A DNA stretch of 64,000 nt from Psococerastis gibbosa (lineage: Eukaryota > Arthropoda > Insecta > Psocodea > Psocidae): assembly GCA_963971405.1 (NCBI GenBank), contig OZ020492.1, positions 7,750,001 through 7,814,000 on the forward strand, written 5' to 3'. Under the pieces are notes generated by a model. That model was not told where the DNA came from and searched no databases. It worked only from the letters and a program-made list of their open reading frames with translations. Both the position numbers and the translations under genes were made by a program. Positions 24,569-47,865 of this stretch are shown here, piece after piece (position 1 is the first letter of the stretch; each line of letters begins with the position of its first letter).

Positions 24569-24583
24569 AAGCAAACCCCATTG

Positions 24584-25150: not shown

Positions 25151-25154
25151 GAGA

Positions 25155-27649: not shown

Positions 27650-27770
27650 ACTTAGGGGTCCCACCGGATTTTTGTATTACAAGGGTATAATTGAATAATT
27701 GATTATATTTATAAATATATTCCTCCGGCGCAGGGGAGTACCGGCCGAAGAAGAAGAATTATTATTAAAT
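27650..27770 (+). mobile_element. LINE 3' tail, divergent hairpin
   Basis: GGGGTCCCACCGGATTTTTG, then ATTCCTCCGGCGCAGGGGAG and TACCGGCCGAAGAAGAAGAA. The loop AGGGGAGTAC is conserved against 10915-10942. The arms changed on both sides (CTCCGGC with GCCGAAG) and still pair largely. Confidence 0.55.
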
Positions 27771-28909: not shown

Positions 28910-30420
28910 CACCACTGTGCACACTAGCAAGTTTGCCGCAGTTTGAATTATGCTCTGTTCTCATGGATTCAATATAGTAATCTACATTATTTGACTACTA
29001 GCAGAGTCAGACAGTGGAACTTGATTTGTATACAAATTTATAGTGGAAGTAGTTTAGTTACTGTGGTCTATGGTGGTAGTGACGGCCATATGAAAAAGTG
29101 TAGTTCCCTGATAGCCCTTAAAATGTAGAACCTTTTCTTCTATCTATAGTAGTAATTCATGTATAAGAAACCAGGTACGAGTGAGCCCGTACATGCTTTC
29201 TGTAAGGTAATCTGCAATATGTAAGGTTACTTTAAAGCAGCGAAGTTATTTTTTCCATTGGTAAGTTCGCCAAATTGTAACTTCTTACATCCCATTTAGC
29301 TTCTCTATCGCGCTTAAATCCCCATTTACATTTCATTTTTCGCAAAATATGAGGTGGAAAATTTGGGTTTGCTTTGCATATCACGCAATCAAAAGGTGAA
29401 AGCCAAAATGGGGAAGGCAGGCGCCAAGGAAATCTCTCACAATTTCATTGAGCATTCCATCGAATTCTTTACATTTTCCTAAAAGTGGATACTTAACATA
29501 CTTTCTTTGCCCATTTCCTCAGGCATAAGAAACAATCTATGGTGTAATAAGGGGAAGTTGTAGACATTGAGTTGAGTCGCCCAGACGTGGAATTCCATTT
29601 TTCTTCCCTCTTTCCCCTTTTCTTCTTCTCTACCTCTTAAGGCAACCTCCATTGAACTTTCAAAATAAGTCACAACTTTGCCGATTCTTTCAATTTTTAT
29701 CGCTGACTCACTAGAAACGAAGGAAGTACCATCAACACGTTTGAATCCCTGCAGTATTTTTTGCAGACTACTGACTGAGAAGCATTTTCTGTGGAAATTA
29801 TCAGGAAAACTATCAAAGTGACTGAAAATGAAAAAAAAGTCGACGTTTCTTTAACTTAGTGAGAGGAAGTTTGCGATTTGCGTTGAGAATCATTGTTTAT
29901 TTTCACTTCCTTATGATTTAACGGGAATTGTTACTCTGCTGGGACTTCTACAATTTATACGGGATGTTTTTCTCGTTGAACCTATTAGAAAAGCATTGAA
30001 GTATAAAACAGTAGGTTTAAGATATTTTCTGCCAGACCTACCACCCAATGGGTAGCTTACCTTCTCCAGTTGGGAAAACGTGGCTGCCGATCATGTAATA
30101 ATAATAATAATACGTGTATTTAACCAAAAAAACAGTACACATTTTTCTAGTAACCGGTGACACAAAGCCAATAAAGGCGCGTTGGGATCACCGCTGCTGG
30201 GTTCGGCCCCGATAGCAAAGAAAAAAAATGGTTTGCATATTATTCGGCTTTGTCTGTTTCCAAATAAATGCTTATTTATTTATTTTTATTTAAAGGGTTA
30301 CCATTTGATGGCGGTTTTTTTAGTTGTCTCTCTCTGGAATATTTTTCTCACTGAGCCTATTAGTCAAGAACTGAATATGTAAGAAACCGAAAATTTGTTC
30401 ATTAAGGTTAGCATGAAAAC
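28910..30420. other. Unassigned DNA, 1.5 kb
   Basis: GTACGAGTGAGCCCGTACAT then GCTTTC at 29174-29199 matches the hairpin at the left end of family I, as a solitary terminus. GGGAAAACGTGGCTGCCGAT near 30072 resembles SINE-H. Otherwise nothing recognised. Confidence 0.4.
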
Positions 30421-30485
30421 AAGACTTTATAGTCTTATTGTTCGCCTTTTGTTTGCAATAAAGTCGTTTTTTCATTTCATTTCAT
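30421..30485 (+). mobile_element. Retroelement 3' tail with (TTTCA)n
   Basis: AGTCTTATTGTTCGCCTTTT then GCAATAAAGTCG and TTTCATTTCATTTCA, the same tail as 13601-13665. Confidence 0.55.
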
Positions 30486-31040
30486 AGCCCGATACCCCTA
30501 AGGTGGTAAAATGTTGCATATGGTGAATATTATGTCTTGCCTGCTGGCGTACTTTATTCTAAGGTTAAAAAAGTGAACAAAACAATGTTGAGTAGCATTT
30601 TGCATTCTAAAAATAATTTGTTTATTGCAACCCCAGAATAAGCTTTTCTTAAAACCCCACAGTTTGCCTGCTGCATTATAACACTAAGTGTTACAAATTG
30701 TACGCGATGTAACTAAATAATCTACCAATCTACTAACTTATTTATTGCAGCAAAAATAGACACTGTGAACGCAATACCATGGGATGTCACGCACAGAAAG
30801 GGGGGGGGGGGCGTCCGGGGGCGTTCACAATATCAGGTTTAGATAAGCTTTTCTAGCGAATGCCTTTCAATAAAAACTTGCTTTTTTTAATCGTGTATCG
30901 ACTTTTCTGTTTTTAAGGGTTTTTGTAATGAAATAATATTTTTATTATTGTTTTGGTGTATGGAGTTAGAGGGTGCATTGAAAGAGTGAAGAGCCGTAAG
31001 TAGCTGACCCCTGTAAATTTTTTTTATCATTGTTTAAAAA
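30486..31040. other. Unassigned DNA with G run
   Basis: A run of about 12 G at 30799-30810 is followed by CGTCCGGGGGCG. No gene was recognised. Confidence 0.4.
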
Positions 31041-31044
31041 GATA

Positions 31045-31208
31045 AAATCGCGTACAAACAATTGAATGAATGTATCCGATTAACCTCTTCAATCGCCCCA
31101 ATAAGTAACCTAATAGGTACTTGTGTTGAGTTACGACAAGTCTCCGACCGCAAGGTGTGTAGAGACTCGCACAAGTACAAGCACGCTACCACCTTGCCAC
31201 CAAAGTTG
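31045..31208 (-). mobile_element. SINE-C copy
   Basis: The minus strand has GGTGGCAAGGTGGTAGCGTG, CTTGTACTTGTGCGAGTCTC, the TCGTAACTCAACACAAGTAC body and the 3' end CATTCAATTGTTTGTACGCG. This is the best-preserved member of the family. Confidence 0.75.
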
Positions 31209-31650
31209 CAAGTGGTTATAGAGGCGATAAATACCTACCATATAGTAAATGTATGGTAGATCGTGCTTAGATATCACAGGTACTAGGTAGGATCAGGTAT
31301 CGGCCTGTATCACAATTCATAACACACGATAAGCCCCTCTCCACTCCACTGAAGGAATTATATACATATTATATTGTTTGTAACCAGTCCGTCGGGATTT
31401 CGGCTAATCCAAGACTGACGTTGAGCAGCAATTGCTGACGGCCGTATTAACCCGCCTGCCAATATAACACGTATCTGACAGTCAATAATACAGTATGCTT
31501 TTGTTGCAACAGTGGCAATATCGATTGAAAGCCTACTGTTTGGGCGACAAAGGGACGCATTGCCCTGATTTGTCCATAAAGACTTAATATTTTGACGCTT
31601 TTATTTAAATGGGATCAGATTTTTTTTTAACACCTGCGCTCAAAACCATT
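31209..31650. other. Unassigned DNA
   Basis: Nothing recognised. Confidence 0.35.
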
Positions 31651-31652
31651 TA

Positions 31653-31889
31653 AAATGGAAATTGGAGAAAATTATTTCGATCGTATAAAAGAAGTTTCAT
31701 TGCGTGCGTTTGTTCAAATTTACTCCGGTTTACTGGTCGAAAAGCTCGAGTTGAGTTGATGAACATTTTTAATGTGGAAATTGGAGAAAAATATTACGAT
31801 CGTATTAAGGAAGTTTCATTGCGTGCGTTTGTTCAAATTTACTCCGGTTTACTGGTCGAAAAGTTCGAGTTGAGTCGATGAAAATTTTT
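31653..31889 (+). repeat. Recent 121-bp tandem duplication
   Basis: Two units start with TGGAAATTGGAGAAAA-like sequence (near 31658 and 31779) and share AAGTTTCATTGCGTGCGTTT, GTTCAAATTTACTCCGGTTT and ACTGGTCGAAAAG with very few differences. High identity suggests a recent event. Confidence 0.85.
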
Positions 31890-32129
31890 TTACTAGTAGC
31901 TCAAAGCGTTTTGTAGCAAAAATGTGGCAAAATTGTATGTTAAAAAAAAAGCGGATATGGGCGAAAAAACTGATTCATTGGACCTTCCACGTCACGCTGC
32001 AAAGCTAAAACCCATATGCATTGGCTTATGGTACTTCCGTAAGCTCAGGAAATCCATTGTCCGTCCCAATTGCACCTCCAAGTCACAATGAAAAAGAAAA
32101 AAAAAATCAACAAGGCATTTCTCTAAACC

Positions 32130-32800
32130 AATTACGGAGGAGCAAAATTTATTTACAGCTTTATTTAAAACCGCTCCACAAAGCTGACACATGAGATTTG
32201 TTTGAAAGTTTATTTACTAATTTTAAATAGCTGGTTTTCTCGAGAGACTGACCGGATTTTATTTTGGAGAGCTAAGTAATTTTATGGCAGCTGACACTAT
32301 ATACACCAAATGTTACAGTCAGGGCCGTATTAAGGAACAGTGGCATACGTGTATTGCCCAGGCAAAAGTTCTAATTATTGTGATGGAGCAAAATTAATCC
32401 ACTACTTAATTTATGACCCCAACCAAAATATATTTTTCATTATTGGAGATTTGTTTCAATCAGGACCGTACTAAGGGAGTTGATTTACGAATTTTAAATA
32501 CTTCGGTTAAGGTAAAATTTTGCATACATGTTCTTTAAAATTGTTCGGGCTTTATTTAAAGCTGCTCCTCTAAGCTGATGCAAGGGCTTTGTTTCCCCGT
32601 AATTGAGATATAGCAAAATAAATGCACTACTTTATTTAAGACCACAGCCAAATAATTTTTTTTATTTTTTTCTATCAGGAAAGGGTTAAGGAAGTTAACC
32701 AATTATAAATACGTCGGTTAGGGTAAAATTTTGCATGCATATCCTTCAGAACTGTTTCTTGACGTTTTCAAATGAAAGCTTGAGTCGAAGAGAGGGGTGA
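32130..32800 (+). repeat. Degenerate tandem repeats, about 220-250 bp
   Basis: Phrases such as TTTATTTAAAACCGCTCC (32160), TTTATTTAAAGCTGCTCC (32552), CAGGGCCGTATTAAGG (32320), CAGGACCGTACTAAGG (32460), GGTAAAATTTTGCATACATG (32511) and GGTAAAATTTTGCATGCATA (32720) recur in the same order about three times. Confidence 0.55.
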
Positions 32801-33256
32801 GGGTAGCCAGTTTCTAAGTGTTTAATTCAGGGCCAAAGTGTTCAGTAGATGGTTCTGAATGAGCATAGGCGCATTGGAAGGAGTAAGGAGAGTCCCTGTG
32901 GGGAAGGAGTCATAGTTGCTACATGGCTAATGACTTAAAAAAAATAAATAAACACGAAAACCCGGAATACATTTTTTTAGGACACATGGGATCGATTGGG
33001 ACTTGTGTTTTATGTATAACGGTGTACCCACGGTGTCTTCTCTAAAAAAAAAAATCAGTTATGTGCGAATTTTGCAATTGGCAATCCTCATGATGGGGTG
33101 TCCCCCATTGTATTAATGAAACCAAACCTTACCGCACAAGGCTGTCAAGAATATGTTGGGAAAATTGGAAATGGTTTCGTCACCTGAAATATATAACGTA
33201 ATAAAGTTGACGTAACTTCTTTAATAAATAAAAATCCGGCAATTGCCATTTGAACT
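32801..33256. other. Unassigned DNA
   Basis: Nothing recognised. Confidence 0.35.
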
Positions 33257-33558
33257 GTGTAGTGGTACAGACTCCGACTTTCACCCGAAAGGTTGTTGGT
33301 TCGAGTCAAGGACGGATACAGGGGGGGGGGGTAGGGGGTAGCTGCCCCCCCCCAAATTTGGTAAATCTATTGTAAATTAATTTACTACGCTCTAATTTAA
33401 TCGATCCTACATATGTTTTTCATATTTTGACCCCCCCCCCAAAATGGGCTGGATCCGTCCCTGGTTCGAGTCCCACACTTGCTAAATTTTCTGGCCATGC
33501 TTCGGATGCAAAGCATGTGGTCCAGGGTCTTCTTAGTTGACTAAAACAAAAAGTCAAT
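33257..33558 (+). mobile_element. SINE-A copy split by a hAT MITE
   Basis: The head GTGTAGTGGTACAGACTCCG, ACTTTCACCCGAAAGG and GTTGTTGGTTCGAGT is followed by the MITE, then by CCCACACTTGCTAAATTTTC and GGCCATGCTTCGGATGC. The 3' hairpin and GGTTGGCTTAG tail are deleted before AAAACAAAAAG and (TTAT)n. The insertion lies in the pol III B box. Confidence 0.85.
33307..33463. mobile_element. hAT-like MITE inside a SINE B box, 157 bp
   Basis: The left end CAAGGACGGATACAG and the right end CTGGATCCGTCCCTG are inverse. The 8-bp duplication GTTCGAGT is perfect (33299-33306 and 33464-33471), and removing the element restores the SINE. G runs follow the left end, and C runs precede the right end. No coding capacity. 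Confidence 0.92.
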
Positions 33559-33985
33559 ATTTATTTATTCATGAAAATGTAGCTAAACGGCTGAAGCTGC
33601 TAGTAATCTGTTCAATGCAATGAATTCAATAGGGGAAGCTACACGGATTTTCTGATACCGACGACGAAGGAAAAAGCTCTGCAGGAAGTAAGAGGAAAAC
33701 AGAGGGAAAAGTTACAAAGCAGGTTCATTGTATAAAAGAAGGTGGTTGGGATATAGCGGGGGAGGGGGTACGAACTTTAGGTAACTCACCCCCCTCCGAG
33801 CACGATAGACTCAATGAAGCGTTCATGGGACGCGATAAGAGTTAGGCCCTAGATCCAGTTTTTAATGATTTAGTCCCAAGGGCTTCGGGTATGATTAATT
33901 GACTAAGTAATGGCAGACTTTATCTAGTGCCACGACTACTTCCATTAGTGTCATTTTCCGGTTATGTAATCAAAATGGTTTAGTG
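33559..33985. other. Unassigned DNA
   Basis: Nothing recognised beyond a GGGGGAGGGGG stretch at 33758. Confidence 0.35.
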
Positions 33986-33987
33986 TT

Positions 33988-34172
33988 GAGTTCTATATAG
34001 GAAAGATGGAACATTTACTCCCGCCAAAGATTTTTTATTTTAATTTCTGCTGGCACCTGCCACGTCTTTTTTACCTATCAGAGCACGTCTTTGAGACATA
34101 AAAACAACAAATTTTCCACGTCGCTGTAAGGCGTGCTTTGACTGGTAGCAGTTGAAACCAGAAATTAAAAAC
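33988..34172. mobile_element. Family E MITE, right end displaced
   Basis: The terminus GAGTTCTATATAGGAAAGAT and inner arms TTTTATTTTAATTTCTGCTG and CCAGAAATTAAAAA are inverse. The right terminus is missing where family I begins. Confidence 0.55.
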
Positions 34173-34174
34173 AT

Positions 34175-35035
34175 CCGAGTTTACTCGAACATGCTTTCCA
34201 ATTTATAAATTAGTAGATATAGACATGTGTAATTTCATAGGAAATAATTTCCCTATAGTTAAATTTGAGATCACTCGAGGGGGGGGGGGGGGTCCACCGC
34301 TTAAAACTTAATTGCATATTCTGGAACGAACAGACCAATACATTGTAACAGTAGTAACTGTGACACATAGCACGTAATGTATTGGAGCGTGAATTTTCCA
34401 TAATTTCTCAAAAAATAATTTTTTGCACAGAAACAGTCATTTTTTGGGAATGGAACCTGTCCGTTTTTGTTACCCAATTAAACACCTAAAACATACCTGA
34501 ATGTAGAAATCATCGATAGAAAGGTAACCTGTCTATCGATGATTTCTTTCAATCCTTCCAATATTTTTTTGTCATTTTTCATGAAAATTGAGTTATTTTT
34601 ATTTTTTTACCCCCAGAAGCAAACTATCAAGAGGCAAGCTACTCCCCGCATTTTGTTAACATTAATGACGACTACAATATATGTGAATTTAAAAGAAATC
34701 GTTAGACCCGTTTTTGAGAAATAATTTTTTTATACTTTTTTTTTGGAGTTTTTATGGGAATAAAACCCCCCAAATTGAGTTAGCCCAAAATAAAATAAAA
34801 ATGGTCTCGAGGTATGATTTTTGTAAACCTATATGCAAAATTTCATCAAAATCGGCCGTGTATTTTGAACAGAGTTGAGTTGAACAGACAGACAGAGCGA
34901 CAGACAGACATTTCGTAAAATCCACTTTTTTTGGTTCCTGGGACCTCAAAACGTGTAAATCCGTTCAAATCGCGAAATCGAAAATTTCGACCATCACAAA
35001 GCTTTCCTTATACTACGTATAAATTGGAAAGCAAA
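34175..35035. mobile_element. Family I element, near full-length
   Basis: The left end TGCTTTCCAATTTATA and the right end TATAAATTGGAAAGCA are perfectly inverse. A small hairpin CGAGTTTACTCG precedes the left end. Inside are a G run (34281-34293), TTTGTTACCCAATTAAACAC and a palindrome GAAATCATCGATAGA with its inverse at 34508-34549. The 3' quarter matches window bases 1-243. The copy at 45279-46130 aligns over its whole length. No transposase was seen; the 61- to 79-codon frames are not conserved between copies. Confidence 0.7.
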
Positions 35036-35438
35036 AATAACCTTGACGTTAGCAAATGTCCCAGCTCTCCTGTATCTAGTCTAGTGTGGTATAGTAGTTT
35101 CGGTTACAGATTGAATCGGCTCAGATCGATTCACACCTATGTGCCGAAATTGCCAATGGAAGTCGAGTAACTGATTACATCTCAAGTCATCTGCTTCAAA
35201 ATTTATAAGAAGACTGGGCCTGGTTGTCACTCACTGTTGAAGCAGGACAACCTCTGGCAGGGCAACCAGGTTGCCGCTGATGTGGCCATATAGTTAAAAT
35301 TTTGAATCGCTAGGACACAAAAAATTAAATGAAGTAGGACTGAACTTATTGCCCACACAACTAATTAATGGATGAAGCCCACTTCCTTTGCCCTAGAGAC
35401 GAGACGGAACCACCAAGTCTAGTCTTCTTTTCGTCTAA

Positions 35439-35495
35439 AGCTGCGTCCTCACTATGCCATGTGACTTTGACATATGGCATAGTCAGGACGGAGCT
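35439..35495. mobile_element. 57-bp hairpin flanked by TAA
   Basis: AGCTGCGTCCTCACTATGCC and GGCATAGTCAGGACGGAGCT are inverse arms around ATGTGACTTTGACATAT. TAA lies on both sides (35436-35438, 35496-35498). It is 6 bp from the next MITE. It looks like an ultra-short TWA insertion with termini unlike GGCGC. Confidence 0.7.
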
Positions 35496-35501
35496 TAATA
35501 A

Positions 35502-35929
35502 GGCGCTCATTCCACATACGTACAACGTCAATGAAAATTATGAAATTGAAGGACATTTCAATTTCTCATTGATGGGGGCCATTCCATATGTTTTTCAAAA
35601 ATTGACAATTTTCAATTGAAGCGTATGCGCCAAATTTTTGAAATTTGTTTCTTGAAATTGTATTTGTTTTCTTCGTCGCCTTATTATTTAATCCTTATTA
35701 TAATTTTTATACAGAAATGCTTTCTTTTTAGAGAAATCAATTAAAATAGTTGTACTTGTCATATCTCATGACGCCATTTTTTAATTTTAGATTGTTTGTT
35801 TCATTGTTTGTGATTTTACTCTATTATCAATTGATCATTGATCAATTTTAACAATGGCATAGAGTAAAATTGAAATGCCCTTCAATTTCATAATTTTCAT
35901 TGACGTTGTACGTATGTGGAATGGGCACC
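35502..35929. mobile_element. TWA-type MITE, 428 bp
   Basis: The left end GGCGCTCATTCCACATACGT and the right end ACGTATGTGGAATGGGCACC are inverse for about 60 bp. They include CAACGTCAATGAAAATTATG and GAAATTGAAGG. The centre AATTGATCATTGATCAATTT is shared with 1895-2276 and 37208-37576. Flanks are TAA and TTA. Confidence 0.8.
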
Positions 35930-35977
35930 TTATATGAATGTCAATGAGCGTCATATAACAGGGGAATCGGGGGATAA

Positions 35978-36140
35978 CTGAGGAGACTAGCGAGACAGTT
36001 TAGTAGTAAAATTATTCCTCGGAATGACAGAGATCGTGGGTTCCAGTACCGCTCTGCCCGGGTTTTTTTTTTCTAAATTCGCTTGTTTCGGGTAACTCCT
36101 CTAGGTTCATTTAGTAATAGAACGAAAACCTTGTTTTTAT
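35978..36140 (+). mobile_element. SINE with different tRNA-like head and SINE-A tail
   Basis: The head AGACAGTTTAGTAGTAAAAT then AGATCGTGGGTTCCAGTACC has A- and B-box-like blocks unlike SINE-A. The end GTAACTCCTCTAGGTTCATT then TAGTAATAGAACGAAAA is the SINE-A tail. Confidence 0.55.
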
Positions 36141-37204
36141 TATTTCCTCGTGAGAGCTAACTTCTTTATTCCCCCTTCATATTAACTGGAGTAAATGCAT
36201 TTGGTTGCTCCCTGCCTAGCCCTAATGACTTTAACCGAGGGTTATACCTGGACATAAATCACCAAATGTACTCACTTTCCTTCCACCAGCCATTTCTTTT
36301 ACTCCTTTTACTACCTACATGTATCGTTTACTCCCCTATATGAAAGACCTCCAGATAATAATCTTTTTTAACATTTTAGCTGTAATAAACATAAAATCAG
36401 GTCCCCAAAATTACTAATATGTAGCTCCTAATTTTATATATTTTTTTAAATTCATAAATTCTTGCATTTAAATACCGGAAATAAAGTTTTTAGTAGTATT
36501 TAAGCTTTCTGTGGCTCTCGTTATAAATTTGAGGGGTTAACTTGGGGAAGGTGTTAAGAAACGATTAAGTGCAGACCTACCGACGCCACTGCTGTCTAGC
36601 CATAATCGTTAACCCTGTTTATTACTCTACATTTGCTATATACGAAGAAATATTTTATTTATTTGTTTATCCTTCATTCTTGTTGGAGTAATGTTGTCAT
36701 TTCACTGTGTTATATACTACCCCAACACCTCTTATTTTAAATGCGTCTTTTGATATTAAATTCACGTTCTGTGACGGGTTATATTGAGGTTTATATTCCA
36801 ATTTTATCTTTACTTTGTTATAGAAAGGATATTAATTTATGGTGAAGTACTTATCAGATTTTACTGTTTCTTTTTCCGAGTCCGTGAAAGATAAGGTATA
36901 AACATTATTTATGATTCCTCTCTCAGAGGAAGCGATAAGCTCTCTTACTGGATCTCTCACACGCACTCGTAGTTGGTTAAGTCCATCTAGTTGTGTTCAA
37001 ACTTTAATAAAGGCCTTAAACCCTTTGGTGCCTGATTGGCTCCCACGAACTTCAGAGAAACCTTTCTTAGGTAAATGGGGCAGCTTAGTCCTATCGACAG
37101 TAAATTCAATTTTATCCATAGAATATTTTCGCCATTTGCCATTTACCGAAGGCAAGTTTTCTGCAATTTAGTAGTAGCCACCCTAATCGCCCCGCTCATC
37201 ACGC
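36141..37204. other. Unassigned DNA, 1 kb
   Basis: An 86-codon frame at 36911-37171 has no recognised family. Nothing else found. Confidence 0.4.
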
Positions 37205-37207
37205 TTA

Positions 37208-37576
37208 GGTGCCCATTCCATTGACCGGCTAGGGCTATTTCCAAAAACGGTGACGTGGTAGCAGACATTCAAGACTTAGGTGCCGTTTCCACCGACCTCG
37301 CATTGCAGAATTGACGGAAATGTTTATTTTCCTCTATGCCATAGTTAAAATTGATCAATGATCATACAGTAAAATCACAAACAAACAAACTAAAATTAAA
37401 AAATACAAAGTACAAACATTTTAATAGATTTCTATAAAAAGAAAAATTCTAATTTCCGTCAATGTCATTTGCAATCTGCAATACGAGATCGGTGGAAACG
37501 CAACCCAAGTCTTGAATGTCTGCTACCACGTCACTGTTTTTGGAAATAGCCCTAGCCGGTCAATGGAATGGCCGCC
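37208..37576. mobile_element. TWA-type MITE, best copy, 369 bp
   Basis: The left GGTGCCCATTCCATTGACCG, CTAGGGCTATTTCC, GTGACGTGGTAGCAGACATT is inverse to the right end CCGGTCAATGGAATGGCCGCC. It is flanked by TTA on both sides (37205-37207, 37577-37579). Arms of about 140 bp surround a central AAAATTGATCAATGATCAT. No coding frame. TWA duplication suggests PIF/Harbinger. Confidence 0.88.
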
Positions 37577-37581
37577 TTAGA

Positions 37582-37862
37582 AAAGTTTTCGCGAGGAATA
37601 CTGGCGCACCGCTATCTATTGGAACATGGGGGTACCACGGTTTTCACGGCTGGAGTTACGTGATGAAGCAGTAGAATCCAAGATGATAGGCCGTGGTCGT
37701 TCTGAGAACGTACTTCCCAAGCGACCCAACGGCTTCATCATGAATTCAGACTTCTTTGTCGTGTTTGTTGCCATACAGCTAGGTGGCACCCCCATGTTAG
37801 CATGACCCTGTGCTTTTATTCCTCATGAATACATTTCTAAGCGTGGAGTGGGACCATTCCCC
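37582..37862. mobile_element. Family L inverted-repeat element
   Basis: The left GAGGAATACTGGCGCACCGC, ATTGGAACATGGGGGTACC is inverse in outline to the right GGTGGCACCCCCATGTTAGC, ATTCCTCATGAATACATTTC, TAAGCGTGGAGTGGGACC. The middle (GATGAAGCAG...CTTCATCATGAATTCAG) is partly inverse too, with a GATAGGCCGTGGTCGTTCTG phrase found again near 61790-61815. It abuts the TWA MITE. Confidence 0.55.
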
Positions 37863-38225
37863 AGTCTCAGTGCCTACATTCGTTGATTCTGTCACATAAG
37901 GTAAGCACTTTGGTGAAAGGCTTAATTAAGCTGACACTTCAGCCTGTTAGATTTTCGAATGGGTTACGTGAATAATTCTGCCCCTTGTCTTTCAACGCCG
38001 CCTTACTCCTCCAATTGCTGACTTCACTAACGTCTTCCATTCATCTCTTCCTTGGTCACCCCATGGATCTTTGTGGATCATCGTTCTACAGCTTCTTAGG
38101 CACTCTGTAGTTCCGTCGTCTGAATCCCCCTGCTTTTATGCCGCCAGATGGCTCATACGGATCAAAGCGACCAATAATACTGAACTGTCTTCTCCCACTC
38201 CATTTTTTTTTACTATAACCCTATG
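37863..38225. other. Unassigned DNA
   Basis: Nothing recognised. Confidence 0.35.
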
Positions 38226-38512
38226 CAGAGGCGTAAAGTTTTAGAATGATGGCGGGGGCAAAACTAAGTAGACCTTATGACGTCATCAGGCAGGATAAGG
38301 AAAAATTGAAAATATAAGAGCAAAATAGTAGGGTTCTACGCATTTCAATAGTGGTAAAGTATAGCTGCAGATTTTACAAAGCTTAAAAAAGGGATGCCTA
38401 TATTTATATTGGTGCAAAGGGGACCATGAAGTATGAACCACGTCTTACGATGCTCGAGGCTGGGGGGGGGGGCAAGTTGGACCGTGCCCCCCCCCCCAAC
38501 TTTACGCCCCTG
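38226..38512. mobile_element. hAT-like MITE, 287 bp
   Basis: The left end CAGAGGCGTAAAGTTTT and the right end CAACTTTACGCCCCTG are inverse. The flanks ACCCTATG (38218-38225) and GCCCTATG (38513-38520) are an 8-bp duplication with one mismatch. A G run (38462-38472) and a C run (38487-38497) lie close together near the right end. No transposase frame. Confidence 0.85.
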
Positions 38513-38520
38513 GCCCTATG

Positions 38521-39004
38521 ATCGCTTTGTTTAGGAAGGGGCGCTATTTCCAAGTCTTACCTCATACTAAAATGATGTCACATCTCGGCTCCGGTTGCGT
38601 CAAATTATTCACACAATACTCACCCCTTTCAAAAGGAGCCTTAATACAAAACAGCCCTGCAGGAGTATCAATTTACACAGTTATTGACTAAAACCGTAAA
38701 TTAATCTACTAATAAAGCATTATTCCAATTAGATCTATAGAACATATACTAATAAAGGGTTCCCTTTAGTAAAGGCATGTCAGTTCCTTGTTAAAGGGGA
38801 CTTCCGCTCAGTTCACATGTCTTTCACCAAGATTTGTGTCTTTGTGAATAAGCATGCAATTCAATTTTTTTATATCACCATCGAGACCTATTTATTTATT
38901 TTGCTTTTATCCATTTTTGCCTTTTCTAGCGCAAAAAAATATACTCGCTAGCTATTTTAGGTTATGAGAAGTTTCGTCAATTTCGGTTTCATTAGATGAA
39001 GGAA
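38521..39004. other. Unassigned DNA
   Basis: Nothing recognised. Confidence 0.35.
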
Positions 39005-39095
39005 GAAATTTGTAGAGCCATAAAAATCCCTTTGAAGAAACGCTCCTGAACATTTTCAAATGTGTTTCACTAATACCGATTAGCCATAGTTTCTG
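39005..39095 (+). mobile_element. Family G arm, solo
   Basis: TTGTAGAGCCATAAAAATCC, GAAGAAACGCTCCTGAACAT and CACTAATACCGATTAGCC resemble one arm of 13958-14280. Confidence 0.45.
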
Positions 39096-39555
39096 AAATC
39101 CTTCCTCCGGCCAAAATAGTGCCTATTATAATATTATTAACTATAATTCAATGATGACGCGACGTAGTCCGAGAAAGAACCTTCCAAGGAAATCATTCCT
39201 TAAAAAAAACTTGAGGAATACGTTAAGGACTAATCCTTTTTTGGCCTCTGATTTTTTTTCCAGCATCCTTCCATTCAAGCTTATGGCTTCTAATAATGAA
39301 TTCAGAATTACATGGTCTCCTAAACCTTCACTTTCAGTTTTTTTTATTTTATTTTTATTTTTTAACAAATCTATTTCCAAAAGTGGGCTAATCTGTGTTA
39401 GTAGTGGCCAGATACGATGATATCAAATGTTTTTTTTAATATTCTGAGGGACTTTTATTATTAACCTTGGCCTACTTATAGTGGCGCATTGGTCCTTAGT
39501 CCAATTCCGACCACCCCAAGGATTTTGGCCGTTATTTATATTGTTACCGTAAGAA
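39096..39555. other. Unassigned DNA
   Basis: Overlapping 79- and 89-codon frames on opposite strands are low-complexity and unassigned. Confidence 0.35.
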
Positions 39556-39559
39556 TTTT

Positions 39560-39680
39560 ACTGGTATACGTCTCCGATGTCAACCTACCCCGATTATTAG
39601 CGGTAATAAGCCGAAATAAGCTTACCATTGAGGCAATGTAACAGACAAAGGCATGACTTTCCAAGTACAGATGCAAGTCA
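39560..39680 (-). repeat. Repeat D copy, partial
   Basis: GATGTCAACCTACCCCGATT, AAGCTTACCATTGAGGCAAT and GTAACAGACAAAGGCATGAC are the reverse complement of repeat D. Confidence 0.55.
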
Positions 39681-40512
39681 ACCATGAATCAAAAGGTAGA
39701 GGAGGATTTCCTCTAATTATATTTTTTATTTTCTACGCCGGTAAAGTAAGGATAGATGCTTGGTATTGGGGAATCAGCGTTCGTGCAGGGGAACCTAAAC
39801 ATTGAAAAGAGGGGAAAATCATGGAAAGGTGTAAGGCGCTCCAAAGAAACAAGTCCAAAGCGTACGTCGCATCATATTAAATTAACATTAATTCAAGCAA
39901 AGAAATTTCAGTCCGTCAGCTGATGCAATTAACCCCTGTTCCAGTCACCGAACAAATCAATTGGAACGTAACTAAGTTAATAATATATGGAATGTAACAT
40001 GTTTCAGCTGTAAGCTCCAATATTTTAAAGGTTCGCGCGCCATTAACCTTGGCACCTTTTTTATTTTCCAATTTGCAATTAATTCTTTTTGATGATCCGC
40101 TGGCACTTTTTTACTTGTCCGCTTTTAGAACGGCGGGGTAAACAAAATTTTTAATTTAATAACATTTAAAAATAAAAGTGATTAAGTTTTCTAGTCGAGA
40201 GAGAAACCGTCTGAAAGCTCTCTATTGATTTTTAATAGTGCATGGTATTTATTAAAAAGCTACCTCTTCACTGTTTACCTTGAAGGCAAGTTCCCAGTTA
40301 AGTATTTCATATATTTTTATATAAAAGGTTATTCGCACACAAGCAATTTAATTAATATTAAAAAAAAAATGTATCCAAGTCTTCTGCATAGTATTGTAAC
40401 AAGTTTTACTTTAACGGTGCCTTTGGCTACAGATCATAATATTGCTATTTAAGAGACAACCAAACGGGAAAAACCTTACTGGTGTAAAACATATCCATCG
40501 TAGGGCTATCTA
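39681..40512. other. Unassigned AT-rich DNA
   Basis: Nothing recognised. Confidence 0.35.
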
Positions 40513-40515
40513 TTA

Positions 40516-40655
40516 GGCGCTTATTCCACCAACGTCAATAGTGATAGTAAATGTAGTATTGACGTGGTAGCAGACATTAAAGACAGTCAAAAAATGTCTG
40601 CTACCACGTCAATACTACATTTACTATCACTATTGGCGGTGGTGGAATAAGCGCC
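40516..40655. mobile_element. Short TWA MITE, 140-bp near-perfect palindrome
   Basis: The left GGCGCTTATTCCACCAACGT, AGTGATAGTAAATGTAGTAT, GACGTGGTAGCAGACATT is inverted across a short AAAGACAGTCAAA spacer. TTA lies on both sides (40513-40515, 40656-40658). Arm identity is very high, suggesting recent origin. Confidence 0.9.
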
Positions 40656-40699
40656 TTAGGAAAAATCCATTTAAAGAATTGTTCCTCTTCTTCTTCAAG

Positions 40700-40830
40700 T
40701 TACAGCCGGCTGGTTGGTTGGCAGCAACATGTGGCATCGGTGACAAGGTGGTAGCGTGCTTGTACTTGTGCGAGTCTCTATGCTCCATGCGATCGGAGAC
40801 GTGTCGTAACTCTGCACAAGTATGAATTTA
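40700..40830 (+). mobile_element. SINE-C copy
   Basis: GTGACAAGGTGGTAGCGTGC, TTGTACTTGTGCGAGTCTCT and GATCGGAGACGTGTCGTAAC, then a divergent end. Confidence 0.7.
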
Positions 40831-42330
40831 CTCATTGAGATGACATTTTTAAATTTAAGGGCGCGAGGCCACGTTTGTGGCATATGCGCTAAGGCTCTAA
40901 ATAATCATAGTAAATATATCATTTTTAGAAGTTCAGTGTGTTGGAAAAAGGCTGAATGTGAAATACATTGCTATAGCGTCGTTTTAAAAAAGAAAAAGAA
41001 ATCTATAGCTATCCTTTCAGTCGCCTTTGTAGGCAATCCCTGTCTCGACAGGTCTCGCATAATGTGTATAGACTTGAACAAATGTAATACGTGTGCAAAG
41101 CACCTCTCAATTTTATTTACACTGCACTGGAAATAAGTGATTTGCAGATGTGCCATATAAAGGAGCGATATGTACAACGTGCTTTATAACTACTCTAAAT
41201 TATGAGCAAACACTGAATACATAATTCCATAATATTAAAATTAGAGAAATAGTTGTCTAGTCTGAAACAAATCGCGCAAATATTTCACTACAATTGCAAA
41301 GTTCCCGACAATGGGCATAAAGGATAGGAAAAGCTGTTCAAGCTACTTAAAAGTTTCGTGTAACCAGGGTCGATACGGTGTACAGGAGGGGGGAGGGGTG
41401 CTGCAGGGAGTGTGGGCGTTGGGGGGGGGGCAGGGGGAAGGTTAAGAAGTTTACAACATGAAATGACACCTTAGCAAAACATACGAGCCTTCCTGGTAAC
41501 GTCACTTAGCGCAACTGAATAATATATTAGTTTAGAAAATGGCTGAATCATCATCATGCACACGATTACGTGCATGTTGTATGACAATTGCCTAAGAATA
41601 AAGTACATTATTCGTGTCAAAGTTGGTACGTCTGGTGTTCTAGCCTTGAAGGGCGTTTCTGTCTAAATCCACTCCCACTATGAAGTTGGTACACTTACGA
41701 ACTTATGCCCCCCTCCCCTCCACGTGGAGGTGTGGAAATTATTTTTTTAAAGTAAGTTCAATTCAATAATTTTAACTGTTTTAATTTTTCCCATTAAAAA
41801 AAAATCATAGCTCATAGCCAATAAATTAATATCTCGTTTCGAGATTATTTACAAAAATGCTCGTTGGCCCGCTCCTACGATATTTGACTTGTGATAAAAC
41901 ACAATAGATTTTGTCAAGAGAACTGCTATATTAATGCAACAAATTCTGTATTGTAAGTTCTATTTCTTGAATGCGTCGTCTGCTTTTCCCTTACCGATAA
42001 TCTTATTTTATAGATTAAAAATTGTTTATATACTGATTTTGACGATTTTACTTTATACTTTCTTGTCGATTACTTGTTTATTACTTGATTGTATAACTTA
42101 ATGGAAATATATGTTTTTATTAAATATATATATAACAGAAATATATGTTTTTTTATTTATACTCTTAAGAAAATGCATTGTGTAAGTATTATCAAAGTTT
42201 AGATGCTTCAGGACATTTTCAAAGGGCGATGAAATGACATTGTAGCATTCTATGATATATAATACTGACGTCATTGAACTAACTTAGGTTGAAGAGGCAA
42301 CCTCCTCGTTATAACCGAAATTGAGGATCT
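40831..42330. other. Unassigned DNA, 1.5 kb
   Basis: Contains a G-rich stretch (41386-41437) and (TA)n near 42123. Frames of 60-104 codons on both strands at 40822-41177 are unassigned. Confidence 0.4.
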
Positions 42331-42340
42331 AGAAAAATCT

Positions 42341-42416
42341 GAACTTAGCGGGATTCGAACCCACGATCCATACCTTGCCGGGGCATCTTCATGACCGCTA
42401 GACCACACACAAGCCC
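42341..42416 (-). tRNA. tRNA-like unit, probable pseudogene or SINE head
   Basis: Read on the minus strand this is exactly 76 nt. The seven-base ends GGGCTTG and TAAGTTC can pair fully (four Watson-Crick, three wobble). The D arm carries TGTGGTCTAGCGGTCATG (A box), and the T arm GTGGGTTCGAATCCCGC (B box) has a perfect five-pair stem counting one wobble. A TTTTT pol III stop lies 3 nt downstream (42333-42337 on the plus strand). The anticodon arm does not form a proper five-pair stem, so no anticodon is assigned. A tRNA pseudogene or the head of a SINE is more likely than a working tRNA. Confidence 0.45.
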
Positions 42417-42925
42417 GCCAGTACAGAGTTTGCTAAATCATTTTAATCAAATTAATTGGCTGTTACGTCATGTGTTTTCCAAAAGTTTGCAAAGATTTCC
42501 CTTAACGAGTACTCCGTAATTTTTTTTAGCGCAAATATCCAATTTATATGCGCATGCTTAAAAACCAGTCAGCATTATATAATTTCCCACAACCCTTGCC
42601 CCGAGAATAGGTGGCGCCCTCTCCTACAGAAAGGGGAATACGACAGATTCTACAGTCCTCCGGCATAATTTTATGATATTCCAATGCACGGCAGACCGCA
42701 GAAGTAAGTGGCATTTGTCAGATTCGGCTTTCCGTGGATTTATTGACAGAAGGTGGGAGTGGAGCTTAGTAGCGAACTGTATTGTTTTACAATAGGCTTA
42801 AGTCTGCGCCCCTGATTTCTTGGTGTAAATCCTGGTTGCCAAGTTGAACCCTGGTTGCAGTTAAGGGAGATTTCTCCCAAAACTAAATTCTATGTCTGGC
42901 TATGTTTATATTTTATTTTTAACGT
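42417..42925. other. Probable intron upstream of plexin exon
   Basis: No repeat or exon recognised. It leads into the pyrimidine tract of the splice acceptor. Confidence 0.4.
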
Positions 42926-42943
42926 GTTTTTTTTTCCTTTCAG
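42926..42943 (+). promoter_or_regulatory. Splice acceptor of plexin exon
   Basis: A run TTTTTTTTTCCTTTCAG gives a strong polypyrimidine tract and AG directly before the coding segment. Confidence 0.85.
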
Positions 42944-43120
42944 AGTACTGGGAACATCCTCAACTTCTGCGAGGTAGGACTGAAAATTTCCGGCGTCACT
43001 CCCATACGCAGCCAGGCTTCAGTTGTTTTCAACGACAGCGCCCTAACTTCGGTCACATTAGCCATTACGGAGAAGCACACTGTTGCTTTCCTCGGTACAT
43101 CCAAAGGCTACATCAAGAAG
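42944..43120 (+). CDS. Internal exon of a plexin (Sema domain)
   Basis: Plexins are single-pass axon-guidance receptors for semaphorins. This 177-base, 59-codon exon is open in the frame beginning AGT, bounded by CAG and GTAAGT. It reads STGNILNFC at its start and ends HTVAFLGTSKGYIKK. The motif HTVAFLGTxxGxLxK, with upstream LTSV, is characteristic of the C-terminal part of the plexin Sema beta-propeller and distinguishes plexins from semaphorins. Both boundaries are phase 0 if the exon starts at AGT, so the exon is symmetric. The longer frame 42892-43149, read two bases over, is a shadow with an unrelated product. No other plexin exon was recognised, so introns must be long. Plexin A or B subtype cannot be told from 59 residues. 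Confidence 0.88.
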
Positions 43121-43126
43121 GTAAGT
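43121..43126 (+). promoter_or_regulatory. Splice donor of plexin exon
   Basis: GTAAGT follows the AAG codon, a consensus donor. Confidence 0.88.
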
Positions 43127-43159
43127 TCCTACTTTGTATTAGCTATTGATTATTCGGTC

Positions 43160-43220
43160 CTTGTTGTCACCCTACATCGGCTACAAGTCATAATGGACAT
43201 GCTGAGACCATTCTCACATT
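43160..43220 (-). repeat. Repeat D scrap in plexin intron
   Basis: GTCACCCTACATCGGCTACA and AATGGACATGCTGAGACCAT, CACATTGTAAC follow the order of repeat D in reverse. Confidence 0.35.
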
Positions 43221-43257
43221 GTAACTATCGTGGGCCCGTTTGAACCACGTTCCTCTT

Positions 43258-43445
43258 GAACCCGGTCCCAAACCACGCTTTGAAATGTTTTCATGCGGAA
43301 TAGTAGTACAGCGCAATGCGTTGGAACATAACAATAAACACGGTAAAGAATTCAAAATTCAGGTATGCCCCCTCATGTTCCAATGCATAGTATTCCTCAC
43401 CAAAACTTTTGTAAGCGTGGTGAGAGTGGCCCTTGCCATGATGAA
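43258..43445. mobile_element. Family L inverted-repeat element
   Basis: The left GGTCCCAAACCACGCTTTGA, GGAATAGTAGTACAGCGCAA, TGCGTTGGAACATAA is inverse to the right end CCCCCTCATGTTCCAATGCA, TAGTATTCCTCACC, GTAAGCGTGGTGAGAG. It is about 190 bp with no coding capacity. Overlapping frames are shadows. Confidence 0.65.
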
Positions 43446-44670
43446 TGTACTAATGATGGGTCTGTGGTGGAACTAACAGATGTAGCACCAACCGGAAAGA
43501 ATAACATACTTGGGGAATTATTGAAACTATTTAAATACGGTGTTAAAACTCATCCCCATAAAAGCAGACGAAATTCAATTGTTTCGTCATGTTGGGCCCG
43601 AAAAAGCCTATAACAATGTTCCGTCTACGCCTAGCAAACGCAACAATAAACAGCAATTTCGCTTTAATTCCCGTAAGTCAATTTGCACTCATTAGGGTTT
43701 ATCTAGGATAATGTACTCTTATTCCCGGATAATTGTTTCTTTATTCCTTAAATACCTGATTCGCGTATTTAAGTTTCCTCTATTTTAACTATAGAGAACA
43801 CACATTTCCCCCCGATTTGACCAGTTTTATTACCTTGTTTAGGCCTGTCCTCATAGACGGTCGGTGACACGACAGCAGCGTTTCCACACAATCGTGTTCT
43901 GTGCGTTCTCGGTTGAGAGCCCCAAACTTCTCAAATCTTCTATCATATCTTTCTTCTCAGTGTAACTTCCTCCCTGGTTGCCTTCTTCGTTGTATCTCCC
44001 GGTTCATACCTTTTTTGACTGGGTGGTTTTCGTCTCTACGTCGTAGGTGTACTGTTGGGGAACAGTTCAGCCTCTTTTCTCTTAGTTTCTCCTGTCACGG
44101 CACGGGTTTTCATCTCTTATTACCTTTTTATCTATATCATTTCCAAAAATTAGAAGTGAATGGAAATGCCCCAGGGTGGCGAAATGTAATAATAATAAGT
44201 GATTTATTATAATTAGTGAGTTCGATAATAGAAGAAACAAAAGTAAGTGAAAAATGTGGGAAGTACAGGTAGCCCAATTCACAACTTGGTCAGCAGTTTT
44301 GAAATTTTTGCTGTAATCTGTGAAAAAAAAATACGCCAATCTTTAGGATGAAAAAGGAAATATATAGGGAATGTGAAGCCGTGACGAGATTTTAAAAAAA
44401 AGATATGCAAAAAAGGTCGGGAAAATGACACACGCACACTAATTCAACATAACAGAGGTGAATTCTCTCTTGTTAGTTCCTCCATGTGGAGGAATTTTGG
44501 GAGAATTGAACGGAGTGGGATGAAATTTTTGAGGGGAAAGGGTTATTTGACAAGAATTGAAAATTCATTTCCATGCATTTTCAGCTTCCTACTATCGTTT
44601 AAGGGGTTATTGTGCAAAATCAATTCTTTTGCTTTCCTTTTTTTATGCAAAAGATTACAACTAAATAAAT
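43446..44670. other. Unassigned DNA, 1.2 kb
   Basis: Probably plexin intron. Frames of 80-103 codons on both strands are unassigned. Confidence 0.35.
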
Positions 44671-44676
44671 AATTTT

Positions 44677-44845
44677 AGTTCCATTACTAAACCAATCTAG
44701 CGTTGCAGTAAAGCCGTCTCATGTGCATAAATAGGATAGCCTGCTTTACATGTCCTCCGAGGCATGGCCCGAAAATGTAGGTCGCGAGCCAACAACTTTC
44801 CGAGTGAAAGTCAGGAGTCCTTACCACTGCACTATTTCTAAGAAT
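44677..44845 (-). mobile_element. SINE-A copy
   Basis: It is the reverse complement, from the tail (AGATTGGTTTAGTAATGGAA) to the head (AGTGCAGTGGTAAGGACTCC). The B box is GTTGGCTCGCGAC-like and degraded. Confidence 0.7.
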
Positions 44846-44879
44846 AGCCATAACATCTGATGTTAGGAAAATACTCAGA

Positions 44880-45095
44880 ACCATGGACATGTACATGACT
44901 CGTATCTGTACTTGGTTAAGTCATGCTTTCGCCTGTTTCATTGCAGTAAGCTTGTCTCAATTTGTCCATTATCGCTTGTAGCCGGTGTAGGTTGACATCG
45001 CTGACGTTTGCCAATAGCCAAAAATTCATATGGAAAAAATACAAATAATGTCCGAAATACATGGGGTCGTTGGCATTGGACAAGGGACATAATAA
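44880..45095 (+). repeat. Repeat D, most complete copy
   Basis: ACATGACTCGTATCTGTACT, GGTTAAGTCATGC, AGCCGGTGTAGGTTGACATC, AAATAATGTCCGAAATACAT and GGGGTCGTTGGCATTGGACA, in order. Confidence 0.6.
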
Positions 45096-45100
45096 CCACT

Positions 45101-45156
45101 CCCCCCACCAGGCTGACAGGGTTGCTTAAAGCAGAAATGCTAAAAGCAGGCGTCGC
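45101..45156 (+). mobile_element. SINE-B 3' tail fragment
   Basis: CCAGGCTGACAGGGTTGCTT, AAAGCAGAAATGC and AAAAGCAGGCGTC. It lies directly after repeat D. Confidence 0.65.
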
Positions 45157-45278
45157 GAAAAAAAATATTGCCCATGGAACCTCTCCCTACGAAAATACCT
45201 TTTTTTATTTTTCGGAAAATACCGGAATTCTTTTAACCCATATATAGGCCAATAGGTAATTCGTGCATTATTAAAAGA

Positions 45279-46130
45279 ACCGGTTCGAGTTCACTCGAAC
45301 ATGCTTTCCAATTTATCAAAATTAGTAGATAGAGAAAATGAGTAATTTCATGGTAAATAATTTTCCTATATGGTTAAATTTACGATGTCTCGGGGGGGGG
45401 GGGGGGGGGGGTGTCCACCTGACGTCACTCGTCACTGGTGGTGAGGTAAATTCTAGATAGGTCAGACCAACACATTACCACCCAGCAATACTGGCAGGGC
45501 ACGCAATGCATTTGAGCGTGAATTTTCATCATTTAAAAAAAAAAAAACATTTTTTTGTACAAAACCAATTACTTTTTTGGGAAAGCAACCTGTCCGGTTT
45601 CGTTACTCAATTTAACACCTAAAACATACCTGAAGGTAGAAATCATCGATAGAAAGGTGTCGCAAAAAAATTATTTTTTAGTCATTTTTCATTAAAATTT
45701 AGTCATTTTTATTTTTTTACCCCCAGAAGCAAACTATCAAGGGGCAAGCGACCCCCCGCATTTTATCAACATTAACAAAAACTACTACTACTGAATTTAA
45801 AAGAAATCGATGGAGCCGTTTTGGGGAAATAATTTTTTTAGACGTTTTTTTGAAGTTTTTTGAAAATAAAAACCCCCCAAATTGAGTTAGCCCAAAATAA
45901 AAATAATAGTCCCGAGGTATGATTTTTGTGAACCTACATGCCGAATTTCATCAAAATCGACCGAGTAGTTTGCCCGGAAATCGACGAACAGACAGACAGA
46001 CAGACATTTCGTAAAAACCACTTTTTTGGGTTCCTGGGACCTTAAAACGTGTAAATCCATTGAAATCTCGGAATCGAAAATTTTGACCGTCACAAAGCTT
46101 TCCTTATACTACGTATAAATTGAAAAGCAA
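45279..46130. mobile_element. Family I element, near full-length
   Basis: It starts with the hairpin GTTCGAGTTCACTCGAAC then ATGCTTTCCAATTTAT, and ends TACGTATAAATTGAAAAGCA. It aligns to 34175-35035 throughout, with a longer G run (about 45391-45411). It lacks the second half of the ATCGATAGA palindrome. No transposase seen. Confidence 0.7.
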
Positions 46131-46900
46131 AAATATACAGTACAATCTAAATTCAAGCCTCAAGCCGGAGCGTGTCAGGGTGGCGCAAAATTCCTCTACT
46201 TATTGGTGTTGCTTAATTTATAGACCTAAATATGTGACAGATTGAAGGTTTTCATTCATAATGATCAATTAAACAACTATTTCCAAAAACCACAAACTGT
46301 TCAGACCCAGATATATTAGGCAGATTTCCCAAAATTACCGGATATCTAGCAATACTAACTAAGTTTTAGCGAAATTTTGATTTGGAATCGTTTGAAAGGG
46401 GGTAAGGTGGTCGATGAAATTTTTTAATTGAGACATGCTGGAAAGGCAGATTTATACCGATTCTAAAGAGGTATTAGACAGTCATATCGGTTGAAAACTA
46501 AAGACAGTGAAATTTTTCCCGCGAATGCATGTAATGAGAAAATACCAAATTTCGGGAAAGTTGAGCTAAACAGCCAGGTCTTACCCAATCACCTGGGCCT
46601 AAACCAAAAGACCGATAGTAAACCTAATTACATGTTTGAAAACAGCAAGAATGGTGGAAAATGTTTACACCATTCTAATTGCTTTGAATTAATGTATGGA
46701 CGGCCGAAAATGGGGCATAAAAGGGCCTATTTTGGCAATTTTCCATCATTTTTCACCTTTTGGCGACATTTCCCCCCTCCCCAAACAAAATACACCCACC
46801 CCAAGTGTGCCAATGTCCGTAAAAATAATTATAATACTATAATAAACATAAAAAAGTCAATTCCAAATGAAAAAAAAATGTCAGCCCACTTATGATATAT
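46131..46900. other. Unassigned DNA
   Basis: 46380-46560 is an inverted relative of about 3420-3600 (ATTTTGATTTG, GAAAGGGGGTAAGGTGG, CGATTCTAAAGAGGTATTA). The 134-codon frame at 46491-46895 continues into A-rich sequence and has no recognised family. Confidence 0.4.
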
Positions 46901-46904
46901 GTGG

Positions 46905-46978
46905 TGTCGAACCCGCATGCTTTGGTTCATACATCCACGGCGCTCACCGTTACGCCAAGTAGGGCCCGATTTTGAGGT
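46905..46978 (-). mobile_element. tRNA-like SINE head
   Basis: The minus strand reads TACTTGGCGTAACGGTGAGC (A box) and GCATGCGGGTTCGACACC (B box) 30-35 nt apart. The acceptor ends do not pair, so a SINE head or tRNA relic is preferred. Confidence 0.4.
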
Positions 46979-47039
46979 CAATTAAAGTGCCTATTCAATC
47001 GAGAGCTTCCAAAATTCAACGGGTGGGCGGGGAGTGGGC

Positions 47040-47130
47040 GCGTAGAGTACCCGAGTACCTTCACTTAACCAGCGGAAACCGCGAGGTCGTGGGTTCGAAC
47101 AATGCTTGTGACGGATTTTTTTTTCAATAA
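47040..47130 (+). mobile_element. tRNA-like SINE head
   Basis: GCGTAGAGTACCCGAGTACC then ACCGCGAGGTCGTGGGTTCG (B box) and a run of T. It lies just after a minus-oriented tRNA-like block. Confidence 0.4.
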
Positions 47131-47865
47131 TTAGTGACACAATAATTTTATTTTTATTATTTTGTGTTTAAATTTGCATTACTGGCCGAATCGCCAAATA
47201 AATTGGCCCTAAAATTGATTTAATTGTCAAATTTTGAATAGTACAGTGGTCTCCAAGCACGGATTTGAATGAAACTTTTTTGATATTTAAAATAGTGTTC
47301 CAGAAATCTAAATACCAGAGAAAATATGTTTTTAAGTACTTAGCTACATTACAAAAAAAAAATTGGCTCCGCAAATTAGCTTCTTTTTTCTCTTGTCACT
47401 GTTTTAGGTGGATATGTATCGTAAACAATGGGCACACTAAACCGGATCCCTTCTTATTTTTATTTAATGGTAAAAGTAAGTTATCGATTTGGCCTCAATT
47501 GGTTGTAGAAGACAACTTATCAAAAATAGCATAAAGGGTAATTGTTCCAAACAATACGGCGGGACATAAAAGGAAAAAAAAATAATGGCCTGCGTTCCAC
47601 CGTCCTAATTTTGCATTGGCAAAATCTATCTATATAATAATTGAAGATAGTGGTGAATGAAGGCGTTGAGTTACTTATTTAACGAGAGTTTATGGAAGAT
47701 ACCATTACAAAATATGTAGCACGCACTTCCGTTTGGTAAAGAGAGATGGTCCCATGGGGACACAGAACATATTTTTTCTATCTTTCCATTACACGGGCTC
47801 ACAGGTTGATTTCCCAAGCAAAGATTTGGTTTTGAATAAAGAAAAAAGAAATTATGGATTTGCTT
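47131..47865. other. Unassigned DNA
   Basis: Nothing recognised. Confidence 0.35.

What the first reader, a model, noticed from the sequence alone, without database searches (positions are those of the whole stretch)
42944..43120. Single plexin Sema exon marooned in more than 60 kb of repeats
Seen: a 177-base exon with strong acceptor and donor, 59 residues ending HTVAFLGTSKGYIKK. Known: this motif is typical of the plexin Sema propeller. Inference: the plus strand belongs to a plexin gene with very long introns. The whole window may be intronic to it, which would place all these elements in a neuronal receptor gene.
Basis: partly seen in the sequence, partly recalled or inferred. Interest (0 to 1): 0.7.

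Follow-up and report, generated by a model that had tools for sequence, protein, structure and literature searches.

The report
Plexin exon behind a giant intron
The stretch is a genuine coding piece of an insect-like nerve-guidance receptor gene (a plexin), cut off from the gene's previous coding piece by an unusually long intron of about 116,000 bases; it is an ordinary gene part, with a stray duplicate of the same piece elsewhere in the genome.

Summary
The exon at 42944-43120 (+) is real: 177 nt, phase 0-0, with the best-scoring acceptor and donor on the window's + strand. It encodes part of a plexin Sema propeller. The window is C20:7750001-7814000 of a 409-Mb genome. An upstream exon on the same strand, with about 384 Sema-side residues, ends in phase 0 at C20:7677176. 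Joined to the window exon it gives 443 codons without a stop that align with Drosophila Plexin A (E 5e-84). The intron between is 115,767 bp, so window 1-42943 is its 3' part. A true Plexin A on C21 has the same two splice positions and phases around a 63,711-bp intron; the window gene is probably PlexB (inferred). Downstream exons were not found, so 43121-64000 is unproven as intron. Unexpected: window 42003-47458, exon included, is copied at C21:443033-447967 (2.7% substitutions) with intact exon and splice sites, bounded on both sides by copies of one 860-bp repeat; a 119-bp fragment lies on C19. 'More than 60 kb of repeats' is not borne out: 19.9% of the window matches elsewhere in the window, a lower bound.

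The parts
42944..43120 (+). Second coding exon found of a plexin gene (59 codons, phase 0-0), a Sema propeller segment; its residues 10-59 align with Drosophila Plexin A residues 399-447
42928..42943 (+). Splice acceptor with polypyrimidine tract (TTTTTTTTCCTTTCAG)
   Evidence: sequence; best-scoring acceptor on the + strand
43121..43126 (+). Splice donor gtaagt (AAG|gtaagt)
   Evidence: sequence; best-scoring donor on the + strand
1..42943 (+). 3' 42.9 kb of the 115,767-bp intron between the preceding coding exon (coding part C20:7676025-7677176) and this exon
42003..47458 (+). Block holding the exon and copied at C21:443033-447967 (123 substitutions in 4,539 aligned sites)
45277..46128 (+). 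About 852-bp dispersed repeat (E) inserted in the window copy of the block; the C21 copy is empty here; copies of E bound the C21 block

Best explanation
The 177-nt stretch is an internal coding exon of a plexin gene on the + strand, most likely the insect PlexB gene. It encodes one segment of the Sema propeller that in known plexins binds semaphorins. It is joined to the preceding exon, which holds the presumed start codon and about 384 residues, by removal of a 115,767-bp intron of which the window's first 42,943 bases are the 3' part. Shown: exon, splice signals, preceding exon, phases, collinearity, and a paralogue with the same intron positions. Inferred: splicing in vivo, the start codon, class B, and guidance function.
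For: Exon and splice sites. Pfam Sema above cut-off; PDB best hit Drosophila Plexin A, E 6.5e-5, no semaphorin among the 25 hits at E up to 10. Genome-wide Sema search: 13 matches, two on C20, both +, Sema positions 15-78 then 104-154, 116 kb apart. The preceding exon ends CPTAG in phase 0 at gtaagt, the window exon starts in phase 0. The joined 443 codons have no stop and the protein hits Drosophila Plexin A over residues 37-443 at 286 bits. GC3 of the two exons is alike (0.58, 0.61) against 0.38 GC in the window (one search counts). The paralogue on C21 (67.8% identical to Drosophila PlexA) has an equivalent 61-codon exon with the same phases and boundaries after a 63,711-bp intron.
Against: No transcript data. 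No downstream plexin exon was found: no PSI match on the + strand from the exon to C20:7834000, about 41 kb, and no tblastn match to recalled human plexins beyond the exon itself in C20:7730001-7834000 (next E 4.3). The genome-wide PSI and plexin-cytoplasmic searches did not complete. The exon alone is only weakly like human plexins (tblastn E 0.035 and 0.71; phmmer 0.56). It is duplicated elsewhere with intact signals, so an intact exon alone does not prove use. A five-sequence tree does not resolve class.
Confidence: 0.94

Rival explanations
1. The exon is a stray duplicated gene fragment that is not spliced into any plexin; the real exon lies elsewhere.
For: The block 42003-47458 has a copy on C21 with intact exon, and a 119-bp fragment lies on C19. 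No downstream exon of the C20 gene was found.
Against: Of the three places found only the window copy lies on the contig and strand of a matching preceding exon, in order, with fitting phase. The other plexin (C21, 4.09-4.16 Mb) has its own divergent exon.
Confidence: 0.03
2. The exon belongs to a semaphorin or a MET/RON-type receptor with a Sema domain rather than to a plexin.
For: Pfam Sema does not separate these families; MET chains match the joined 443 residues (up to 119.5 bits, above plexin-B1 at 108).
Against: The best matches of the joined protein are plexins (286 bits for Drosophila Plexin A, 153 for Plexin-A4), and the MET matches end at residue 375-377, before the window exon. No semaphorin was among the hits.
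Confidence: 0.02
3. The 115.8-kb gap is not a single intron: a small, skipped or alternative exon lies inside it.
For: About 51 kb of the gap (C20:7678668-7730000) was not fetched, and C20:7730001-7750000 was compared only by tblastn and blastn. The Pfam scan is blind to most Sema pieces: 2 of 9 pieces of recalled human plexin-B1 were seen.
Against: Both phases are 0, and the alignment to Drosophila Plexin A runs through the junction without missing residues. The paralogue has the same two exons adjacent in the protein.
Confidence: 0.1

Closest known systems
Drosophila Plexin A (PDB 6fkm)
   Same: Collinear over its residues 48-447; 41.1% identical over 394 aligned residues across preceding exon plus window exon.
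   Different: The PlexA orthologue in this genome is another gene on C21 (67.8% identical), so the window gene is not PlexA.
Insect PlexB
   Same: Drosophila has only PlexA and PlexB (PMC6695400, passages read), so a second insect plexin is PlexB by elimination. The window gene shares HQG-CEQ with recalled human plexin-B1, where the three A-type sequences differ.
   Different: No insect PlexB sequence was available for comparison; the class is inferred.
Human plexin-B1
   Same: Same Sema segment, gapless tblastn alignment of 46 residues (recalled sequence).
   Different: 27.1% identical over 369 residues (recalled sequence).

Membership tests
Plexin | N-terminal Sema propeller, plexin-type | tested here: met
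   Joined 443 aa: the ten best hits are plexins, best E 5e-84; Pfam Sema in both exons
Plexin | Exon organisation shared with a plexin paralogue in the same genome | tested here: met
   C21 PlexA: same two splice positions, phase 0-0
Plexin | PSI (plexin repeat) domain after Sema | tested here: inconclusive
   None on the + strand to about 41 kb downstream; genome-wide search asked 14 times, never answered
Plexin | Cytoplasmic RasGAP domain (PF08337) | not tested
   The genome search not answered
Plexin class B | Groups with class B rather than class A | tested here: inconclusive
   Not the PlexA orthologue (286 vs 558 bits to Drosophila Plexin A); the five-sequence tree puts the two human plexins together and leaves the window gene alone
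Semaphorin | Semaphorin structures among the hits | tested here: not met
   None of 25 hits at E up to 10, none of 24 at E up to 0.001

The most novel reading that the evidence does not exclude
The exon-bearing block was moved as a composite transposon: two copies of the 860-bp repeat E inserted at the two TCTTATTTT sites bounding 5 kb of the plexin gene, and the unit E-block-E then jumped to C21, carrying an intact, splice-ready Sema exon to a new place (exon shuffling by repeat pairs). The window copy shows the identical 9-mer at 42001-42009 and 47452-47460, at the block ends (read by eye), where the C21 copy has E on both sides in the same orientation.
Probability: 0.3. Interest if true: 0.45.

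Novelty: new member of a known kind. Interest (0 to 1): 0.22.

Why it matters
It anchors a window otherwise poor in recognisable genes to a guidance-receptor gene, and shows that both plexins found in this genome have a very long intron (116 and 64 kb) at the same place between two Sema exons. It also offers a recent (2.7% diverged) case of an exon with its splice sites copied to another contig between two copies of one repeat, a testable example of how exon shuffling can start.

Tried and rejected
tRNA and Rfam searches of the window: nothing. Pfam in all six frames of the window, 30 frame-blocks at E up to 0.1: only Sema (1 block), mitochondrial ND3 (2 blocks) and Fimbrial_CS1 at 0.081 (1 block, taken as chance). 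tblastn and profiles with recalled human plexins: the exon ranks first, weakly for single sequences (tblastn E 0.035 with plexin-B1, 0.71 with plexin-A1; phmmer with plexin-A1 0.56), and no second plexin exon shows in the window. My early doubt that the exon was a lone fragment was dropped after the control (Pfam sees 2 of 9 pieces of a Sema-PSI region, one of them this segment) and the upstream exon. Slower change in the exon than around it between the two block copies: 2 of 177 against 2.8%, P = 0.13, not significant. NCBIfam, a prokaryote library: nothing. Pfam on + frames of five loci downstream in C20 and C21: no plexin domain; RNase H at 6.3e-6 and YABBY_N at 0.0056, the latter taken as chance. 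A five-sequence tree for class: unresolved. Literature searches touching plexin introns or plexin evolution listed no title on this intron; only listings were seen, which is no proof of absence.

Full report
Observation. The stretch 42944-43120 (+) reads ...ttttttttcctttcag|AGT...AAG|gtaagt and is open over 59 codons, phase 0 at both ends. With a generic splice-site matrix that I wrote down, its acceptor and donor are each the only ones on the + strand at or above their own scores; the - strand has one acceptor and no donor at those scores, and among candidates of 150-400 nt the pair is the only open one. Among candidates of 90-600 nt with a combined score of 24 or more there is one on +, none on -, none in 20 dinucleotide shuffles. 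The claim 'more than 60 kb of repeats' is too strong: 12,748 of 64,000 bases match elsewhere in the window, a lower bound.

What it encodes. Pfam gives Sema at 25.4 bits, cut-off 23.7. PDB phmmer gives Drosophila Plexin A first (E 6.5e-5); clathrin heavy chain follows at 0.066 as noise level, plexin-A2 and plexin-B1 lie at 0.6 to 1.2; no semaphorin is among the 25 hits at E up to 10. A profile of four plexin segments (one recalled) finds this ORF first of 2239 at E 1.3e-8, the next at 0.37. A two-sequence profile of recalled human plexins gives 4.7e-5, the next at 2.2. Single recalled human plexins see it only weakly (E 0.035 to 0.71).

Is it alone? Pfam over six frames of the whole window (30 frame-blocks, E up to 0.1) shows no other plexin piece. 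A control shows how little that means: of nine consecutive pieces of the human plexin-B1 Sema-PSI region (recalled), only two are seen by Pfam, the PSI and the segment encoded by this exon. The 'marooned exon' is thus partly an effect of what is recognisable.

The gene. The window is C20:7750001-7814000 of a 409,210,807-bp genome in 68 contigs. A Sema search of that genome gives 13 matches: seven on C1, C2 and C12 (semaphorin-like by inference, not studied), two on C20, three on C21, and one below the cut-off on C19. On C20 the first match (Sema 15-78) lies in a 399-codon open frame on the same strand, 116 kb before the window exon (Sema 104-154). That frame holds an ATG at 7676025 (taken as the start, inferred), a hydrophobic run after it and 384 codons to its end, CPTAG in phase 0 at GGG|gtaagt, the donor at 7677177. 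The acceptor ends at 7792943, so the intron is 115,767 bp. The two exons joined give 443 codons without a stop; the protein aligns with Drosophila Plexin A residues 48-447 at 286 bits, through the junction. GC3 is 0.58 and 0.61.

The paralogue. C21:4092899 and C21:4156874 give the matching two exons of another plexin, 67.8% identical to Drosophila Plexin A (558 bits). Its second exon has 61 codons, KLQTISEDFCG...NGHLKK|gtaaga, phase 0-0, at the same two places, after an intron of 63,711 bp. The TAA reported inside the family match lies past its donor. The window gene is 37.6% identical to this PlexA and 41.1% to Drosophila PlexA. Drosophila has two plexins, PlexA and PlexB (PMC6695400, passages read), so the window gene is probably PlexB. 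A shared HQG-CEQ with recalled human plexin-B1 agrees, but a five-sequence tree does not resolve it, and phmmer scores plexin-A4 and MET above plexin-B1.

How it works. In known plexins the Sema propeller binds semaphorins and the receptor steers growth cones; PlexB in Drosophila binds class 2 semaphorins (PMC6695400, passages read). Here the exon supplies one propeller segment and must be joined across 116 kb of intron. Long neuronal genes are a known trend (PMC7222433, start of abstract in the listing only), and introns grow with genome size in insects (PMC5691397, passages read). No expression data were available.

What is not shown. No PSI exon appears on the + strand up to C20:7834000; the next Sema piece is one that Pfam does not see in human plexin-B1 (piece 8). 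Genome-wide PSI and RasGAP searches did not complete. Whether 43121-64000 is intron of this gene is therefore likely but unproven. About 51 kb of the upstream gap was not fetched.

A duplicate of the exon. A DNA search with the exon and 104 flanking bases gives three places: itself, a 97% copy at C21:444271-444550 and a 119-bp 97% piece at C19:8174730-8174848 (the tool scores only its best candidates, so this is a lower bound). The copied block is window 42003-47458 = C21:443033-447967, same orientation, blastn pieces of 94-97% identity, 123 substitutions in 4,539 aligned sites. Outside it, the other matches of 250 bases or more at 88% or more between the 104-kb and 130-kb regions look like dispersed repeats. 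The C21 exon has 2 changes in 177 (one C to Y), an open frame and both splice signals. No plexin domain shows on the + strand of C21:449400-479399, and the C21 PlexA lies 3.6 Mb away. The C19 piece holds the 3' half of the exon and its donor and is preceded by stops. In C21 the block is bounded on both sides by copies of one 860-bp repeat in the same orientation; in the window the ends carry an identical 9-mer, and one such repeat sits inside. This suggests, without proving, that a repeat pair moved the block. The few other insertion sites of this repeat that I viewed are also T-rich, so the 9-mers may be preferred targets, and AT-rich flanks make target duplications hard to call.

Verdict. 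The finding is correct in its observation and, for the upstream part, in its inference. It is an ordinary exon of a known receptor family with a very long intron; the block copied between repeats is the more unusual part.

Noticed in passing
window 48970-49207 (+): Nuclear piece of mitochondrial ND3 (Pfam Oxidored_q4, E 8e-7 and 0.0013 in two frames, so frameshifted), followed at about 49205 by the body of a SINE-like repeat whose first bases are missing there. A possible head of the same repeat lies before the ND3 piece at 48968-48988: its match to one copy is reached by 12 of 2000 random window stretches, but the match to the consensus by 919 of 2000.
   Followed up: partly
window 8067-8188, 40733-40839 (+); 14556-14714, 20895-21040, 31046-31206 (-): SINE-like dispersed repeat with a tRNA-like head by eye (GGCTTCGGTGGCAAGGTGGTAGCGTGCTTG), several copies alignable; ARAGORN finds no tRNA in the window.
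   Followed up: partly
window 1-253, 34174-35040, 45277-46128; C21:442180-443036, 447968-448813 and others: Repeat E, about 860 bp, a palindrome near one end and a 15-nt inverted repeat between its ends, inserted in T-rich tracts where viewed, many copies on C19, C20 and C21; its class was not determined.
   Followed up: partly
window 1886-2286, 7649-7917, 19958-20349, 37199-37584: About 380-bp repeat with inverted arms (MITE-like by eye), also on C19 and C21 at about 89-95% identity.
   Followed up: no
window 12669-13279 and 31649-31889: Tandem arrays: period 168 (3.7 copies) and period 119 (2 copies, 92% matches).
   Followed up: no
one of L012, L013, L014, L024, L025 (+ strand): RNase H match, E 6.3e-6, perhaps a retroelement remnant; not located further.
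   Followed up: no
C21:4093166-4156876: PlexA of the same genome also has a very long intron (63,711 bp) at the same position as the 115,767-bp intron of the window gene.
   Followed up: yes
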